Source: a virus
Length of the DNA stretch: 57,014 nucleotides
Virus record (IMG/VR): IMGVR_UViG_3300025430_001249
Span: 1-57,014 of that record
Direction: 5' to 3' (one strand)
Part shown: one piece after another, positions 6,514 to 57,014 of the stretch
How the letters are laid out: every line of letters begins with the position of its first letter
How positions within the stretch are numbered: the stretch's first letter is position 1
Translations under genes and position numbers: made by a program
Notes under the pieces: generated by a model
Database searches by the model: none
What the model saw: the letters and a program-made list of their open reading frames with translations, nothing else
What the model was told of the DNA's origin: nothing

Positions 6514-7968
6514 TTAATTTTCTAAAGCGGTTTCTAATTCTTTTAGTTTGTCCGGACGTGTAAGATGAGCAAGTGCTTTAGCTTCGATCTGCCGTACGCG
6601 CTCGCGAGTTACATTAAATCGCTTGCCAATTTCTTCTAGAGTATGCTCGTCCATAGTACCAATGCCAAATCGCATGCGGATAACACGTTCTTCTCGACTG
6701 TTAAGGGTACCTAAGGCATTTGAAATTATACGTGTGATATCTTCATCATTTATCTTTTCAATTGCATCTACAACATTTTCATCTTCAATATACGAACCAA
6801 GGCTATTATCCTCATCATCTCCAACAGGTGTTTGGAGGCTTACTGGATCTCTAGCCACTTGCATCATACGTCTAACCTTTTGAGGATCCATTTCAAGAAT
6901 ATTACCAATTTCTCCCTCTGTTGGTTCATGACCATGAGCAGCAACGTGATCTTTAATTACTTTTGTTATTTTTTTAATTGCATCAAGTACATGGCTTGGC
7001 ACCCGAATAGTCTTGCTGTGTTCAGTTGTTGCTTTGATAATAGCTTGACGAATCCACCAAGTAGCATAGGTACTAAATCGATAACCTAGACGCCATTTGA
7101 ACTTTTCAACTGCTTTAATAAGACCAATGTTACCTTCTTGTACTAGATCTAGCAAAGTAGTTGGATTATTTTGGTTATATCGTTTGGCCACACTAACTAC
7201 TAGACGCAAGTTACTAGTAACCATCTTTTGGATAGATTCTTCTTTTATTTTAGCTTGGGAACGCAGATCCCTAACTGTGTTGCGTAGATCTCGCAAACTC
7301 ATACCAGTTTGTTGACTAATATCGATAATTTTTTGATTGAGTTGTTCTATCTTCGCACCATGTTTTTCTCTAAGATTTAGATAACTTGGTACATCATTAG
7401 TATAAATCCAATCAAGCCCATCTGTAGAAAGATATTTCGCCATCCAATCTTCGCGCTTAATACCGCAACTTTCTGCTAGACGGAGCACTTCACCATCAAT
7501 ACTAACCACTTGCTTGTTAAATGCAATAACCTGTTCCATAAGATGAGACAAGCTTGCTGGATTAAGAGACAGTTCGTTAAATTGCTCAACTAATTGCGCT
7601 CGAACAACCTCATTAGTACGATCTTGTTGATAACTTTCACACAATAATTTGATTTTTGTGAGTTGAGATAAGAATGCAGGGCCTACATCGTCGTTAGAAT
7701 CAAGCTCAATGTCAAATACTTCAACAGCGTCTTGACCATTTATCATAGCAGCGTCAATCCAAGACGTAACTGTTGATATAGTAAGCGGAATTCCCAGCAA
7801 GCGATCAGTAATAGCCTGTTTAGCTGTTTCAATGGTTTGACTGATTTCAATTTCTTGTTTGTGAGTTAGCAATGGAGCTTTACCAACATCTCGCAAATAC
7901 AGCTTTATTGGGTCTTGATAACCTTCATTTTGTTTAGTTGTACGAGATTTAGGTGTAGTTAATGTCAC
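6514..7968 (-). CDS. rpoD: Primary-type sigma70 factor (RpoD-like)
   Basis: A 484-residue sigma factor with all DNA-binding regions of group 1/2 sigma70: region 1.2 (about 18-50, [11 protein letters not shown]), a ~190-residue non-conserved insert, region 2 (247-311, [12 protein letters not shown] and [13 protein letters not shown]: core binding, -10 recognition and melting), region 3 (318-395) and region 4 (415-472, helix-turn-helix [20 protein letters not shown] for -35 recognition). Region 1.1 is missing, so it may bind free promoter DNA more readily than a host RpoD. It starts at GTG 7968, with GGAG 9 bases upstream. T4-like phages normally carry only the small gp55 sigma, so a near-complete RpoD is unusual and may redirect host polymerase to -35/-10 promoters. 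Confidence 0.92.
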
Positions 7969-40514: not shown

Positions 40515-41354
40515 ATGAAATCTGCTGCTGATGTTGTTTTGGCGTTGGAAGTTACTAGTGGTCGTTTGGATAAAGAACGGATTGTGCAAGATGCATGGGA
40601 CCTAAAAATCACAGAATTCTTCGAAGGGGCTCTGATGGCATATGATGCATTGCGCACATATGGCGTTAAAAAAGTACCTCTTATTGAAGGTGACGATTAT
40701 TCAAATTTTGTTTCAACATTTGACTGGGATAGATTCAAAGCTATTGCGCACAAACTTGAAAAACGCGAATTGACGGGTAATCAAGCACGAGACGTTCTTA
40801 GAGCCGCCGCCGATGCTGCCGCAGTTAAAGATTGGAACTGGTTTTATCGCAGGGTACTGCTTAAGGATCTTAAATGTGGTATCACAGAAACCACAATTAA
40901 TAAAATTTTGGAAAAGAACGGTGATAGTGCTAAAAAATACATTATTCCTGTTTTTTCATGTCAACTTGCTAAGAATGGTGATGATCATCCTAAAAAAATG
41001 ACCGGAGCAAAACTACTTGATATGAAACTAGACGGATGTTTGTCGGCACAATGGGAAATTGAATTTGATGATGGGCAAAAAGTATCCATCGCTGAAGTTG
41101 TTGATAATAAAATATCTGGTAAAATTAAATCCTTTAATACCTTAACTGGTAAAATTGAGTTTAATACTATAACAAACTGGGCCAAAAATGCCAAGGATAT
41201 TAATGATGACACAATTAAATGGTATCGCATTACATTAGAAAATGGTAAACTGTTGCCGCCATTAACTGGTAATCATTTGGTATGGTTACCAAATATTAAA
41301 TGTTGGCGAAGGGTTGATTTACTAAAAGTTGGTGATAAATTGCTGGAAAAATAA
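40515..41354 (+). CDS. ATP-dependent DNA ligase, N-terminal part fused to split intein N-half
   Basis: Residues 1-174 are the N-terminal part of an ATP-dependent DNA ligase ending at the nucleotidylation motif I: KLDG with the catalytic Lys. Directly after it, Cys175 opens a 105-residue intein N-half with block A (CLSAQWEIEFDDGQ) and block B (TGNH, giving TxxH), then a stop. No endonuclease or intein C-half is in this frame. The ligase C-half, preceded by an intein C-half, is a separate gene at 42315. Trans-splicing would rebuild motif I as KLDG-CR and give a 448-residue ligase. Neither half can be active alone. AATGGAGC precedes the ATG. Confidence 0.9.
   Translation: MKSAADVVLALEVTSGRLDKERIVQDAWDLKITEFFEGALMAYDALRTYGVKKVPLIEGDDYSNFVSTFDWDRFKAIAHKLEKRELTGNQARDVLRAAADAAAVKDWNWFYRRVLLKDLKCGITETTINKILEKNGDSAKKYIIPVFSCQLAKNGDDHPKKMTGAKLLDMKLDGCLSAQWEIEFDDGQKVSIAEVVDNKISGKIKSFNTLTGKIEFNTITNWAKNAKDINDDTIKWYRITLENGKLLPPLTGNHLVWLPNIKCWRRVDLLKVGDKLLEK
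41037..41351 (+). other. Split intein N-half (IntN) of the ligase
   Basis: 105 residues from Cys (nucleophile 1) to the stop. Block A begins at the Cys; block B is GNHLVWLP with TxxH. It is inserted between the Gly of KxDG and the following Cys-Arg of ligase motif I. Confidence 0.85.
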
Positions 41355-41383
41355 AGTAATACACCATCAAGTTTATAGTCTGT

Positions 41384-41391
41384 GATAAATA
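41384..41391 (+). promoter_or_regulatory. Late-promoter-like GATAAATA
   Basis: GATAAATA 28 bases before the homing endonuclease ATG at 41420, so the inserted gene could be transcribed on its own. Confidence 0.4.
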
Positions 41392-41419
41392 CGGTACAAT
41401 AAACTTGGCAGGTATTTCT

Positions 41420-42304
41420 ATGTCGTATTGTAAATTTTGTAAAAAAACAAATATTAGTCCTAGTCATTATTGTAGGACTATGAAAAGTCAGGCACGATTA
41501 GAGCCTTTTGACAGCCTGTTAAGACAAATGTTGATAGTTGAAAAAATGCCAATCTATAGAATGGAACAAACAAGCGAAGAATGGGCTGGAATTAAAATTA
41601 GTGGAGCACATTTACGAGATTGGTGCAGAATAAATGGAATTACCACTATGAGTATTAAAGAATCTGCAAACTTATTATCAACACGAGAACAATATAAATC
41701 AACTGTAGAACAAAGATACGGAGTTGATAATGTTTCTAAATCAACGTCAATAAAAGAAAAAAAGGTATCAACCAATCAAGATAGGCATGGGGTTGACAAT
41801 CCTTTTCAAAGGGCAGAAATAAAAGACAAAATAACTACAACTCTTTTGGAAAAATATGGTGTTTCTAACGCTCGGTACCTACCTCGTTCTACAGACAAGC
41901 ATATGTTAACAAAACCGCATCAAAAGTTGTCAAACTGGTTACTTGATCAAGGTTTTGTACACGAAAACGAAATTCCCAATTTATTTCCTAAAAAGCGTAG
42001 TAAAAATAACAGAATATATTCCCCGATAGTTGATATATGGATGCAACAATATAGAATTGTGATAGAAATATTTGGTACCTATTGGCATGCTGACCCGAGA
42101 GTATATTATCCAAGTGATATCATTCAATTACATATTGGTCCTACTACTGCCCAAGAAATTTGGGAAAATGATAAGTTGCGACAGGAGCATATAGAATCCT
42201 TTAATGTGACAGTTATCACGATATGGGAAATTGACATTAAAAAAAGCTTTGACAAAGTTAAAGAATTAATACACAATACCGTCAACCTAACCAACTCGTA
42301 TTGA
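41420..42304 (+). CDS. Vsr-like homing endonuclease inside the fractured ligase locus
   Basis: A 294-residue protein. The N-terminus has a zinc-finger-like CKFC...HYC. The middle has three short repeats of the form YGV(D/S)N (RYGVDN, RHGVDN, KYGVSN) that look DNA-binding. The C-terminal ~110 residues have a Vsr/PD-(D/E)xK nuclease pattern: IYSPIVDIWMQQYRIVIEI, FGTYWHADPR and TVITIWEIDI. It lies between the intein halves with its own start (ATG 41420, AGG upstream; TTG 41405 is an alternative). Known fractured phage genes with split inteins carry endonucleases of this type at the break, presumably spreading the whole cassette by homing. Confidence 0.82.
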   Translation: MSYCKFCKKTNISPSHYCRTMKSQARLEPFDSLLRQMLIVEKMPIYRMEQTSEEWAGIKISGAHLRDWCRINGITTMSIKESANLLSTREQYKSTVEQRYGVDNVSKSTSIKEKKVSTNQDRHGVDNPFQRAEIKDKITTTLLEKYGVSNARYLPRSTDKHMLTKPHQKLSNWLLDQGFVHENEIPNLFPKKRSKNNRIYSPIVDIWMQQYRIVIEIFGTYWHADPRVYYPSDIIQLHIGPTTAQEIWENDKLRQEHIESFNVTVITIWEIDIKKSFDKVKELIHNTVNLTNSY

Positions 42305-42314
42305 GGAAAATATT

Positions 42315-42428
42315 ATGACGTTTGTTACAATTAAGGCGATCGAAGAAATTACTGAGCAGTTTGATCGTTATGATTTAGAAGTTGAAAATGTTAGTAATTT
42401 TTTTGCTAATAATGTTCTAGTTCATAAT
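42315..42428 (+). other. Split intein C-half (IntC) of the ligase
   Basis: 38 residues ending His-Asn, with +1 Cys in the C-extein. The length is typical of natural split-intein C-halves. Confidence 0.85.
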
Positions 42429-43253
42429 TGTCGAATTATAAGTATTCTTGATAAAACAAAGAATACAGTTACTCAATATAGCCGAGACGGCCGCCTTAAT
42501 GAAAATTTTCCGCAAATTGCTGCCAATCTTGCTAAACTATTACCAATAATTAAAACCAGTATGGTGTTTGACGGGGAAATGGTAAGCCGTAACTTCCAAG
42601 CATTGATGAAACAGCTTAATCGCAAGGATGACGTTGATACAACTGATGCGAAACTAGCACTGTTTGATTGTTTGCCATTGGAAGATTTTCTGCAAGGCGA
42701 ATGTACGCTTACTCAAACACAACGACACAGTGCTTTGGTTGAATTTCAGCCATTGCTTAGTCAAATATCTAACGGAACTGTTTATGTTGTACCTAAACTA
42801 TGGGTCAACTTAGACACGACCGAGGGACAAAAAACATTTGGAGAATTTAATCGAGATACTGTGGCTGCTGGCTATGAAGGTATTATGATTAAGGATCCAG
42901 AGTCAACTTATAAAACAAAACGCACAGATGCTTGGCTTAAGATTAAACCTTTTATCACTGTAGATCTAGAAGTCATAGCGTTTGAACCTGGTAAAACTGA
43001 AAGTCGATTTGCAAATACACTTGGCGGATTGGTTTGTCAGGGTACAGACCAAGGCAAGTTAATTCAGGTAACGGTTGGCAGTGGTTTTAGTGAAGAATTG
43101 CGTGATCAAATTTGGACCAATAGAGATACGGTAAAAGGTAGAATTGTTGAGATCAAAAGTGATGGTGTAACGCAAAATCAAGATAGTACATACAGCTTGC
43201 GGTTTCCAGTATTTATGCAGTTTCGAGGTTGGGAGCCAGGTGAGAAGATTTAA
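42315..43253 (+). CDS. Split intein C-half fused to DNA ligase C-terminal part
   Basis: Residues 1-38 are an intein C-half: block F YDLEVENVSNFFANN and block G VLVHN with the terminal Asn. Cys39 is the +1 nucleophile, followed by RIISILD, so the junction restores ligase motif I (KLDG-CR). The remaining ~270 residues hold motif III (FDGEMVSR), motif IV (YEGIMIKDP), motif V (AWLKIKPF) and the OB-fold domain (VEIKSDG, FPVFMQFRGW). GAGGAA precedes the ATG. It seals nicks in phage DNA after splicing with the product of 40515-41354. Its stop overlaps the next start (TAATG). Confidence 0.9.
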   Translation: MTFVTIKAIEEITEQFDRYDLEVENVSNFFANNVLVHNCRIISILDKTKNTVTQYSRDGRLNENFPQIAANLAKLLPIIKTSMVFDGEMVSRNFQALMKQLNRKDDVDTTDAKLALFDCLPLEDFLQGECTLTQTQRHSALVEFQPLLSQISNGTVYVVPKLWVNLDTTEGQKTFGEFNRDTVAAGYEGIMIKDPESTYKTKRTDAWLKIKPFITVDLEVIAFEPGKTESRFANTLGGLVCQGTDQGKLIQVTVGSGFSEELRDQIWTNRDTVKGRIVEIKSDGVTQNQDSTYSLRFPVFMQFRGWEPGEKI

Positions 43254-54627: not shown

Positions 54628-56859
54628 ATGTATATAGATGCATTTTTAGAACGCGAAAAAAATCAAATACTTGTTGTTGAACGTAATAAAGTTGGTAAAA
54701 GAATTTATAATCAACATACAACAAAATATTCAGTATATTGGCCTGGTGCTAGAGGTAAGGTACCAAATATATATGGTCAATTGTGTGAAAAGTTTCATTC
54801 AACTAAGCTAAAAGAATTCACTAGAGAAATCAGCATGCTGCCAAAAACCAGCTTGCACGAAAGTGATATAAATCCAATATTTCGATGTTTGTACGACAAT
54901 TATAAAAATGTTCCAAATCCTGAATTACATGTAGCATTTTTTGATATTGAAGTGGATTTTGATCCACTTCGAGGTTTTTCTAGCCCGGACGACGCATTTT
55001 CGCAGATAACAGCTATCTCAGTATATCTCAATTGGTTAGATAGAAATTTTACTATGGTAATTAAACCAAAAGCTATGTCTAAAGATGTAGCTGAGGATAT
55101 TGTGAGCAAGTTTGAAGATACTATTTTATGTGACAGTGAAAAAGAGCTGTTAGAACTTTTTCTCGGTCTTATAGACGACGTTGACATTCTAAGTGGCTGG
55201 AATAGCGAAGGGTTTGATATACCTTATATTCACAATAGAATTGTACAGATTTTGGGTAAAGAAGAAACACGTAAACTTTGTCTTTGGGGTAAATTTCCAA
55301 AAAAGAGAGAATATGAAGCATATGGTCGACTAACCACTACGTATGATCTTGTTGGGCGCGTTCATATGGATTATCTTCAATTATATCGTAAAAATACCTA
55401 TCACGAAATGCATAGTTATCGTTTAGACTTTGTGGGCGAATATGAAGTAGGTGATAAAAAAACTCACTATGAAGGCAGTTTAGATAGTCTATACAATAAT
55501 GATTTTGAAAGATTCATTGAATACAATCGCCAAGACGTAATGCTGCTGGTTAAAATTGATGCAAAGAATAAATTTATCGAACTTAGTAATAATCTTGCAC
55601 ATGAAAATTGCGTATTGTTAGCAACTACAATGGGTGCCGTTGGACTAATTGACCAAGCTATTGTTAACGAGTCTTGGGATTTAGGATTCGTTGTTCCAAA
55701 TCGCAAACACGACAATCGCAGAAGTGAGGCATCTGATGATGATGAAGATGATGTTAATATATCAGGTGTGGTAGGTGCGTATGTTGCAGATCCAAAAGAA
55801 GGAATGCATGATTGGATCGGTGGTGTTGACATCAACAGTCTATATCCTTCTGCTATTAGAGCATTGAATATGAGTCCAGAAACTGTAATAGGTCATATTA
55901 TTAGACCAGAAGCTACTGACAAATTGATATACAAGCGGATGAAAGATGAAAAGAAAAGCTTTGCAGATGCTTGGAACGGGATGTTTGGTACACTTGAATA
56001 TAATTGGGTAATAAATCAAGATCTAACACCGGTCACAGTAGATTTTGAAGATGGGTCAACATCAACGGTATCTGCTAGCGAATTGTATGATCTTGTGTTT
56101 AACAGTGGCAAAAAGTTAATGATATCAGCTAATGGTACAATTTTCAGCTGGGAAAAATCAGGCATTATTCCCGGATTGTTGGCTCGATGGTATGCTGAAC
56201 GTAAAGAACTACAAGCATTGATGCGCGAGCATGCTAAAAAAGCAGACGAAGAAACTGATCCAGATAAAAAGAAAGAATTAAAAAAGCTGGCAGACTTTTA
56301 TGACCAGCGTCAATTGATCAAGAAAATTTTGCTCAACAGTTTATATGGAGCTATTGGAAATCCAGGAAGTCGATTTTATGATCCTCGTGTAGCACAAAGC
56401 ACAACCTTAAGTGGTCGTTGTATTGTGAAGCACATGCAGAGTAAAATTAATGAAATAATTGCTGGCGATTATAATCATCTTGGTATTAGCTGCATTTACG
56501 GCGACACCGATTCTGTTGATTCTTCATCAATTATCAACACTTCAGTTGGCAAAAAAACAATAGAAGATCTATTCTTAAATGGTAATTTATTCTGGAGCGA
56601 GAGAGACAAGGAATATTCTGTTAATGATCAAATCAAATTAATTGGATATGATCATTCTTTGAAAACAGCTGATTGGAAAAATTATAATTACGTTTATCGA
56701 CATAAGGTATCCAAAAAGAAATACCAAGTTAGTACAACAGATGGCAAAAGCGTGATTGTTACTGCCGATCATTCGATCATGATACTTACCAAAGATGGAC
56801 AGCTTGTAAGCAAGAAACCTACCGAACTTTCTATCGGTGATAAGGTTATTTCGTTGTGA
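54628..56859 (+). CDS. Family B DNA polymerase, N-terminal part fused to split intein N-half
   Basis: A 743-residue protein. Exonuclease motifs: Exo I FFDIEVDF (Asp106, Glu108), Exo II SGWNSEGFDIPYI and Exo III YNRQDV. Polymerase motifs A (GVDINSLYPS) and B (KKILLNSLYGAIGN) follow, then motif C is cut at YGDTD. Ser629 begins a 115-residue intein N-half (SVDSSSIINT; block B TADHSIM) that ends IGDKVISL and stops. The polymerase thumb and intein C-half are absent and must be encoded beyond 57014. So the replicative polymerase should need trans-splicing to complete its catalytic Asp-Thr-Asp-Ser. Overall similarity is to T4 gp43-type enzymes. ACGGAG precedes the ATG. Confidence 0.92.
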   Translation: MYIDAFLEREKNQILVVERNKVGKRIYNQHTTKYSVYWPGARGKVPNIYGQLCEKFHSTKLKEFTREISMLPKTSLHESDINPIFRCLYDNYKNVPNPELHVAFFDIEVDFDPLRGFSSPDDAFSQITAISVYLNWLDRNFTMVIKPKAMSKDVAEDIVSKFEDTILCDSEKELLELFLGLIDDVDILSGWNSEGFDIPYIHNRIVQILGKEETRKLCLWGKFPKKREYEAYGRLTTTYDLVGRVHMDYLQLYRKNTYHEMHSYRLDFVGEYEVGDKKTHYEGSLDSLYNNDFERFIEYNRQDVMLLVKIDAKNKFIELSNNLAHENCVLLATTMGAVGLIDQAIVNESWDLGFVVPNRKHDNRRSEASDDDEDDVNISGVVGAYVADPKEGMHDWIGGVDINSLYPSAIRALNMSPETVIGHIIRPEATDKLIYKRMKDEKKSFADAWNGMFGTLEYNWVINQDLTPVTVDFEDGSTSTVSASELYDLVFNSGKKLMISANGTIFSWEKSGIIPGLLARWYAERKELQALMREHAKKADEETDPDKKKELKKLADFYDQRQLIKKILLNSLYGAIGNPGSRFYDPRVAQSTTLSGRCIVKHMQSKINEIIAGDYNHLGISCIYGDTDSVDSSSIINTSVGKKTIEDLFLNGNLFWSERDKEYSVNDQIKLIGYDHSLKTADWKNYNYVYRHKVSKKKYQVSTTDGKSVIVTADHSIMILTKDGQLVSKKPTELSIGDKVISL
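56512..56856 (+). other. Split intein N-half (IntN) of DNA polymerase
   Basis: 115 residues from Ser (nucleophile 1) to the stop, inserted after YGDTD of motif C, a known intein site in archaeal and viral family B polymerases. Block B TADH is intact. Confidence 0.8.
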
Positions 56860-56882
56860 ATCATAACACGGCTTCTATTGTG

Positions 56883-56890
56883 AATAAATA
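56883..56890 (+). promoter_or_regulatory. Late-promoter-like AATAAATA
   Basis: AATAAATA 22 bases before the ATG at 56913; AGGAG lies in the leader. As in the ligase locus, the gene after the intein N-half seems to have its own promoter. Confidence 0.4.
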
Positions 56891-56912
56891 ACTCATAATA
56901 GGAGCGCATAAT

Positions 56913-57014
56913 ATGCCAAAGAAAATTGATAATATCACCGATGTAATAAACTCAGCTAGGTTTAGAGCGGCTACAAATCAACGATCATATTCTCAATCTG
57001 AGATAGAAAAAATA
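56913..57014 (+). CDS. Partial gene after the polymerase intein half
   Basis: The first 34 codons of a gene that runs off the right edge, starting MPKKIDNITDVIN and continuing RFRAATNQRSYSQSEIEKI. AGGAG is placed 8 bases before the ATG. By analogy with the ligase locus this position could hold a homing endonuclease, and the helical basic start is compatible, but nothing diagnostic is visible. Confidence 0.5.
   Translation, partial: MPKKIDNITDVINSARFRAATNQRSYSQSEIEKI

What the first reader, a model, noticed from the sequence alone, without database searches (positions are those of the whole stretch)
54628..57014. Replicative family B polymerase broken at motif C by a second split intein
The polymerase reads through Exo I-III and motifs A and B, stops being polymerase after YGDTD, continues as an intein N-half with TADH, and then terminates. 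A separate gene with its own ribosome binding site and promoter-like element follows, as in the ligase locus. Two core replication enzymes in one phage would then both depend on protein trans-splicing at catalytic residues, suggesting either repeated invasion by the same kind of cassette or a shared control point.
Basis: partly seen in the sequence, partly recalled or inferred. Interest (0 to 1): 0.88.

Follow-up and report, generated by a model that had tools for sequence, protein, structure and literature searches.

The report
Phage DNA polymerase split by intein
In this large virus of bacteria the DNA-copying enzyme is encoded in two pieces, cut inside its active site, that most likely glue themselves together as proteins; the cut was made by a mobile gene cassette of a known kind, whose relatives show it spreading between viruses, losing its DNA-cutting gene and sometimes healing.

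Summary
Window 54628-56859 encodes a T4-like family B polymerase up to YGDTD of motif C, then a 115-aa intein N-half (Ser1, TADH) and a stop. The gene that follows (56914) is not the polymerase C-half but the start of a free-standing Vsr-fold homing endonuclease (HE); the contig ends 101 nt into it. Close relatives complete the locus as PolN-IntN / HE / IntC-PolC, with IntC ending HN|S. Junction registers agree in 54 of 54 non-redundant relatives. The kind is known: 'fractured genes', Aes508/Aes123 phage polymerases (trans-splicing of the Aes123 intein measured), jumbo phage MIJ3. The ligase locus (40515-43253) is a second such cassette, only distantly related and independent: repeated invasion stands, 'shared control point' does not. 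New here: the IntN-HE-IntC unit has homed recently (1 mismatch in 1392 nt inside the ligase cassette, about 70-80% identity outside); the HE has its own late-promoter-like element and a hairpin hiding its ribosome site; HE loss is frequent, and one split intein has re-fused into a contiguous mini-intein by a single deletion, with two more probable.

The parts
54628..56511 (+). Polymerase N-extein: T4-like family B DNA polymerase, exonuclease domain and motifs A and B, up to YGDTD of motif C
   Evidence: Pfam PF03104 and PF00136; phrog_262 E 2.7e-145; relatives 45-84% identical
56497..56511 (+). Motif C YGDTD, last five residues before the splice junction (site A, DTD|S)
   Evidence: sequence; intact relatives read YGDTDSGYFS
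56512..56859 (+). Intein N-half (115 aa, Ser1) with its stop codon
   Evidence: TIGR01445 above cut-off; PF14890; joined IntN+IntC matches Aes123 PolB1 intein 9hth, E 2.4e-20
56761..56772 (+). Intein block B TADH
   Evidence: sequence; TxxH in every half-intein compared
56871..56905 (+). 13-bp hairpin whose loop holds the late-promoter-like TAAATA and whose 3' arm holds the endonuclease's ribosome-binding site
   Evidence: fold z -5.23, 0 of 200 shuffles as good; same hairpin in L002, L011, L030
56885..56890 (+). TAAATA late-promoter-like element of the endonuclease gene
   Evidence: within 60 nt of the HE start in 42 of 53 relatives, background 3.6%
56914..57014 (+). Start of the free-standing Vsr-fold homing endonuclease (33 codons, cut off by the contig end)
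   Evidence: 95-97% DNA identity to L002/L011/L030 HE; full-length fold from relatives
40515..41036 (+). DNA ligase N-extein, up to KLDG of the catalytic lysine motif
   Evidence: phrog_114; sequence
41037..41354 (+). Ligase intein N-half (Cys1, TGNH) with stop
   Evidence: joined halves match NrdJ-1 intein 8ubs, E 4.2e-5; 100% identical to L037
41367..41408 (+). Hairpin with TAAATA inside, upstream of the ligase endonuclease
   Evidence: fold z -2.38, 3 of 200 shuffles as good
41405..42304 (+). Ligase-locus homing endonuclease (Vsr-like core; start codon uncertain, ATG at 41420 possible)
   Evidence: weak Vsr matches; hhalign 97% to pol-locus HE over 69 aa
42315..42428 (+). Ligase intein C-half ending HN
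   Evidence: PF14890
42429..43253 (+). DNA ligase C-extein (starts CR, nucleotidyltransferase and OB domains)
   Evidence: PF01068, PF14743

Best explanation
The polymerase gene was invaded at motif C (between YGDTD and the next Ser) by a mobile 'fractured' cassette: intein N-half, free-standing Vsr-fold homing endonuclease, intein C-half. Two proteins are made, PolN-IntN and IntC-PolC. The intein halves associate and splice in trans (Ser1, block B His, terminal Asn, Ser+1), restoring an unbroken YGDTDS active site. The endonuclease is a separate gene, probably expressed late from its own promoter, with its ribosome site hidden on mRNA that reads through from the polymerase. It presumably cuts intein-free polymerase genes of co-infecting phages so that the whole unit is copied in. 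Shown here: the anatomy, complementary junctions in relatives, purifying selection, transfer of the cassette as one DNA unit, and the predicted leader hairpin. Inferred: splicing in this phage, endonuclease activity and target, and late expression. The ligase gene carries a second, distantly related cassette that behaves independently.
For: Complete loci in relatives: L002, L011, L030, L119 and dozens more. N and C junction registers agree in 54 of 54 non-redundant loci. All compared polymerase IntN start with Ser and carry TxxH; all IntC in that set end HN. Closest solved structure is the Aes123 PolB1 split intein 9hth; it sits at the same site, DTD|S, with a VSR endonuclease between, and its trans-splicing has been measured (PMC11923092). 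dN/dS: IntN 0.07-0.11, IntC 0.06, HE 0.14-0.20. HE model pLDDT 91, residues 220-347 match Vsr 1cw0 Z 11.7 and I-Bth0305I 3r3p Z 10.8. Cassette DNA 98.7-99.4% identical between L002 and L030 (spacer 96.2%) against 74-85% in exteins; window against L011 92-97% against 76-80%. HE leader: TAAATA in 42 of 53 loci; hairpin z mean -1.80 against -0.06 and +0.18 for PolN and IntC starts.
Against: The window's own C-half lies beyond the contig end and no overlapping contig was found. No splicing or cutting was observed. Split polymerases may work without splicing in some T4-like phages (gp43A/gp43B; PMC2988022), so the intein could in principle be dispensable. Covariation support for the leader hairpin in the other clade (site B) is only suggestive.
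Confidence: 0.92

Rival explanations
1. Genes in pieces: the two polymerase halves work as non-covalently joined subunits and the intein halves are decaying remnants.
For: Split gene 43 (43A/43B) and other genes-in-pieces exist in T4-like phages (PMC2988022). Atu_ph07 has its polymerase in two adjacent ORFs at another position (L028).
Against: The break falls inside motif C. Every catalytic splicing residue is kept in the sets compared, dN/dS of both halves is 0.06-0.11, and the registers agree in 54 of 54 loci. Remnants would have drifted.
Confidence: 0.05
2. Sequencing or assembly artefact: an intact polymerase or contiguous intein broken by errors or a chimeric join.
For: Metagenomic contig that ends in the locus; the near-identical ligase cassette could act as an assembly repeat.
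Against: Same arrangement in many contigs from different metagenomes, some in duplicate (L002/L021, L035/L036, L037/L038), and in cultured phages MIJ3, Aes508, Aes123.
Confidence: 0.02
3. Shared control point: both replication enzymes were split so that trans-splicing can switch replication on together.
For: Both splits lie at catalytic residues and both HEs have a TAAATA-plus-hairpin leader.
Against: The cassettes occur independently across genomes, the inteins are of remote lineages, many relatives lack one or both, and the leader controls the endonuclease start.
Confidence: 0.02

Closest known systems
Aeromonas phages Aes508/Aes123 split DNA polymerase (gp43B-1 / VSR endonuclease / gp43B-2; Aes123 PolB1 split intein)
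   Same: Same gene, same insertion site (DTD|S), same order IntN, Vsr-type endonuclease, IntC; Aes508 also has a group I intron in the polymerase, as several of our relatives do.
   Different: Intein about 36% identical to that of L011, the window's nearest relative; host phage is a 160-kb T4-like phage; polymerase further split into 43A/43B.
Pseudomonas jumbo phage MIJ3 and PA5oct-like phages, split PolB with putative split intein (PMC6892783)
   Same: Same gene and site, SVDGS... start and ILVHN|S end, endonuclease between the halves.
   Different: The endonuclease is a 560-aa DUF723 protein annotated as HNH, not the Vsr-fold one; IntN 40% identical.
'Fractured genes' of Dassa et al. 2009 (doi 10.1093/nar/gkp095; not held, known to me from memory and citations)
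   Same: Split intein in a conserved phage enzyme with a free-standing Vsr-like endonuclease between the halves.
   Different: Polymerase and ligase hosts here; I could not check the paper's own list of host genes.
Salicola phage SCTP-2 PolB mini-intein
   Same: Related intein in the same motif.
   Different: Contiguous, two residues upstream (YGD|TDS), ends KN.

Membership tests
Fractured gene with split intein | Host enzyme interrupted by intein halves encoded in two genes | tested here: met
   IntN with stop in the window; IntC-PolC as a separate gene in L002, L011, L022, L030; for the ligase both halves are in the window. The window's own PolC gene is not visible.
Fractured gene with split intein | Free-standing endonuclease gene between the halves | tested here: met
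   HE start at 56914 in the window and full HE in relatives; ligase HE 41405-42304 complete
Fractured gene with split intein | Splicing residues conserved (residue 1, block B His, terminal Asn, +1 nucleophile) | tested here: met
   window N-half directly, C-half by relatives
Fractured gene with split intein | Trans-splicing activity | not testable with these tools
   shown by others for the homologous Aes123 PolB1 intein (PMC11923092)
Vsr-like (EDxHD) homing endonucleases, type I-Bth0305I | Vsr fold of the catalytic domain | tested here: met
   model residues 220-347: 1cw0 Z 11.7 rmsd 2.8 over 113; 3r3p Z 10.8 rmsd 3.3 over 95, on the L002 relative
Vsr-like (EDxHD) homing endonucleases, type I-Bth0305I | Conserved catalytic residues | tested here: met
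   E225, D263, EFNGDYWH 274-281 invariant in 38 sequences; assignment to the EDxHD positions is from memory
Vsr-like (EDxHD) homing endonucleases, type I-Bth0305I | Cleaves the intein-free allele | not testable with these tools
   indirect: cassette identity far above extein identity
T4-like family B DNA polymerase | Exo and polymerase motifs up to motif C | tested here: met
I-TevI-like late control of the endonuclease | Late-type promoter plus structure hiding the ribosome site on read-through mRNA only | tested here: inconclusive
   element and hairpin found; predicted ribosome-site accessibility 0.00 read-through against 0.98 late start; transcript starts not measured

The most novel reading that the evidence does not exclude
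Gene fracture is a reversible phase of the homing cycle that pays because it frees the endonuclease from its host gene. As its own gene it can have a late promoter and a hairpin that silences it on polymerase mRNA. When the endonuclease is lost the split intein lingers and can re-fuse. L203 is an L163-like locus minus 952 nt, and it still carries endonuclease tail bases and the IntC start Met inside a now contiguous mini-intein. L018 and L202 look like two more independent cases.
Probability: 0.5. Interest if true: 0.65.

Novelty: new member of a known kind. Interest (0 to 1): 0.5.

Why it matters
Inteins are usually thought to go one way, from contiguous to split. These phages show spread as a unit, endonuclease loss, and a return to a contiguous intein, all at one catalytic motif. 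That makes it testable whether splitting is a dead end and what it gains. The polymerase and ligase pairs are also new natural split inteins, from remote lineages and so likely orthogonal, for protein ligation. Two to three neighbouring insertion registers within one motif offer a system for studying competition between elements.

Tried and rejected
No contig continuing the window: exact scan of its last bases in viral contigs found none. No near DNA match in phage records. Reading the downstream gene as the polymerase C-half: rejected, it is the HE. RNA intron in the window: none in Rfam, though seven relatives have a group I intron at motif B. HE by sequence against PDB: nothing significant; fold comparison was needed. 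Foldseek alone gave weak E-values (0.18-0.29) for Vsr and 3r3p; the second aligner's Z above 10 carries the claim. RNAalifold found no consensus for the site-B leaders, and pair counts gave modest support (79.6% paired, 10 double-changed cells against 5.8 shuffled, 10 of 500). So the family-wide hairpin rests on fold z-scores and the window's own clade. Paper search for a split ligase intein: no hit, which is not proof of absence. Dassa 2009 is not held. An attempt at the L002/L030 right-hand junction profile failed in the script; the region averages are used instead. A third register rests on one locus (L154) seen from the C side only.

Full report
What was checked. The window is a 57,014-base virus record. 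The 743-aa ORF 54628-56859 carries the PolB exonuclease and polymerase domains and then an intein N-terminal region. Motif C ends at 56511, the intein N-half starts at 56512 with Ser, TADH is at 56761-56772 and the frame stops at 56857-56859. The gene that starts at 56914 is the beginning of a homing endonuclease: the same 347-aa protein lies complete in L002, L011 and L030, and the 101 visible bases are 95-97% identical to them.

The missing half. Twenty-nine viral loci encode relatives of the polymerase. L003-L008, L014-L017, L024 and L025 read straight through motif C as YGDTDSG (L016 stops just after it at its contig end). L002 (a 452,799-base contig), L011, L030 and others have PolN-IntN, the endonuclease, then a gene that starts with IntC, ends ...LLVHN and continues SGYFSAYP into the polymerase C-terminus. 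A search with the endonuclease gave 80 loci. Those sampled sit almost without exception between the two polymerase halves. There are two main registers: YGDTD|S...HN|S (site A, the window) and YGD|S...HN|TDS (site B, two residues upstream). One locus, L154, suggests a third. In 54 of 54 non-redundant loci with both halves the registers agree, so splicing would restore the motif. Site A endonucleases form one clade (85/88), so the change of register tracks the endonuclease lineage.

How it most likely works. The joined halves (window IntN, L011 IntC) match the solved Aes123 PolB1 intein (9hth, E 2.4e-20). GenBank records of Aes123 and Aes508 show the same site and order with a VSR endonuclease, and trans-splicing of that intein has been measured (PMC11923092). 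A model of the contiguous relative L203 is moderate (pLDDT 79, poor end) and matches inteins first (5bkh Z 11.5), though with high rmsd. Selection is purifying on both halves and on the endonuclease. The endonuclease model is good (pLDDT 91.4); its last 128 residues match Vsr (1cw0, Z 11.7) and the homing endonuclease I-Bth0305I (3r3p, Z 10.8).

Evidence of homing. Between the window and L037 the ligase cassette differs at 1 of 1392 bases, while ligase exteins are 69-80% identical. Identity jumps at the first intein codon on the left; on the right it runs on about 60 bases into the extein, as expected of co-conversion. Between L002 and L030 the polymerase cassette is 98.7-99.4% identical (spacer 96.2%) with exteins at 74-85%; window against L011 gives 92-97% against 76-80%. 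The intergenic spacer moves too, so the unit of transfer is the whole IntN-endonuclease-IntC DNA.

The ligase is split at KLDG|C...HN|CR. Its intein's best solved relative is NrdJ-1, it resembles the polymerase inteins only weakly, and its endonuclease shares a 69-aa core with the other. Across genomes the two cassettes are independent: both in the window and in contig 3300000553_003188; ligase plus site B in 3300032675_000077; polymerase only in the 452,799-base L002 genome (intact ligase), in L021/L043 and in L022/L041; neither intein in L009/L039. So invasion was repeated by related but distinct elements, and coordinated control is not supported.

Control of the endonuclease. A TAAATA element like the T4 late promoter lies within 60 nt of the endonuclease start in 42 of 53 loci, against a 3.6% background, 9 of 51 polymerase starts and 0 of 54 IntC starts. 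In the window as a whole it precedes 17 of 64 genes against about 2.8% of random 60-mers. In the window the element sits in the loop of a 13-bp hairpin whose 3' arm contains the ribosome site (z -5.23). Predicted accessibility of that site is 0.00 on read-through mRNA and 0.98 on mRNA starting at the element. Hairpin z-scores average -1.80 at endonuclease starts, -0.06 at polymerase and +0.18 at IntC starts. This resembles I-TevI of T4, where a late promoter frees a hidden ribosome site (PMC2988022). Relatedness inflates these counts, and the covariation test on site B was only suggestive.

Decay and healing. Twelve site B rows have both halves but no endonuclease, and L212 has a remnant; L022 is such a case at site A. 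Three intein genes are contiguous: L018, L202 and L203, each among split relatives; the tree needs three changes. L203 and its sister L163 are 98.2% identical apart from one 952-base deletion. L203 keeps the bases of the endonuclease's last codons and the IntC start ATG inside the linker, so the direction split to contiguous is shown for this pair, barring mis-assembly. L018 keeps a Met at the same place; L202 has Ile there, which is weaker. I found no report of natural re-fusion in the papers searched; that search was narrow.

Verdict. A real, functional-looking split-intein polymerase, a new member of the fractured-gene kind already known from Aes508/Aes123 and MIJ3. The surprise lies in what its relatives reveal about the element's life cycle rather than in the split itself.

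Noticed in passing
L136:3783-5516: An IS605/TnpB ORF lies between PolN-IntN and a truncated Vsr-type endonuclease (178 aa, lacks about the first 175 residues), inside the fractured polymerase.
   Followed up: partly
L009, L011, L012, L013, L018, L022, L026 (polymerase motif B): Group I introns interrupt the same polymerase gene at motif B (RF00028, 83-104 bits), in several cases together with a motif C intein.
   Followed up: partly
L018:10164-10169 and L033 (SCTP-2): Two contiguous inteins end Lys-Asn instead of His-Asn, while L202 and L203 keep His-Asn; unusual penultimate residue.
   Followed up: partly
L154:3052-3975: Possible third register within motif C: IntC ends HN and continues CDTDSVY; the N side is not in the locus.
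   Followed up: no
window 6514-7968 (-): Phage-encoded sigma factor (phrog_351, E 1.9e-86).
   Followed up: no
L130:5871-6491 and L133:5771-6694: Extra ORFs sit between the endonuclease and the IntC-PolC gene (gaps of 601 and 890 nt).
   Followed up: no
L031:3771-5453 (MIJ3): Same split intein site as the window but a DUF723-type endonuclease: endonuclease exchange at one intein site.
   Followed up: partly
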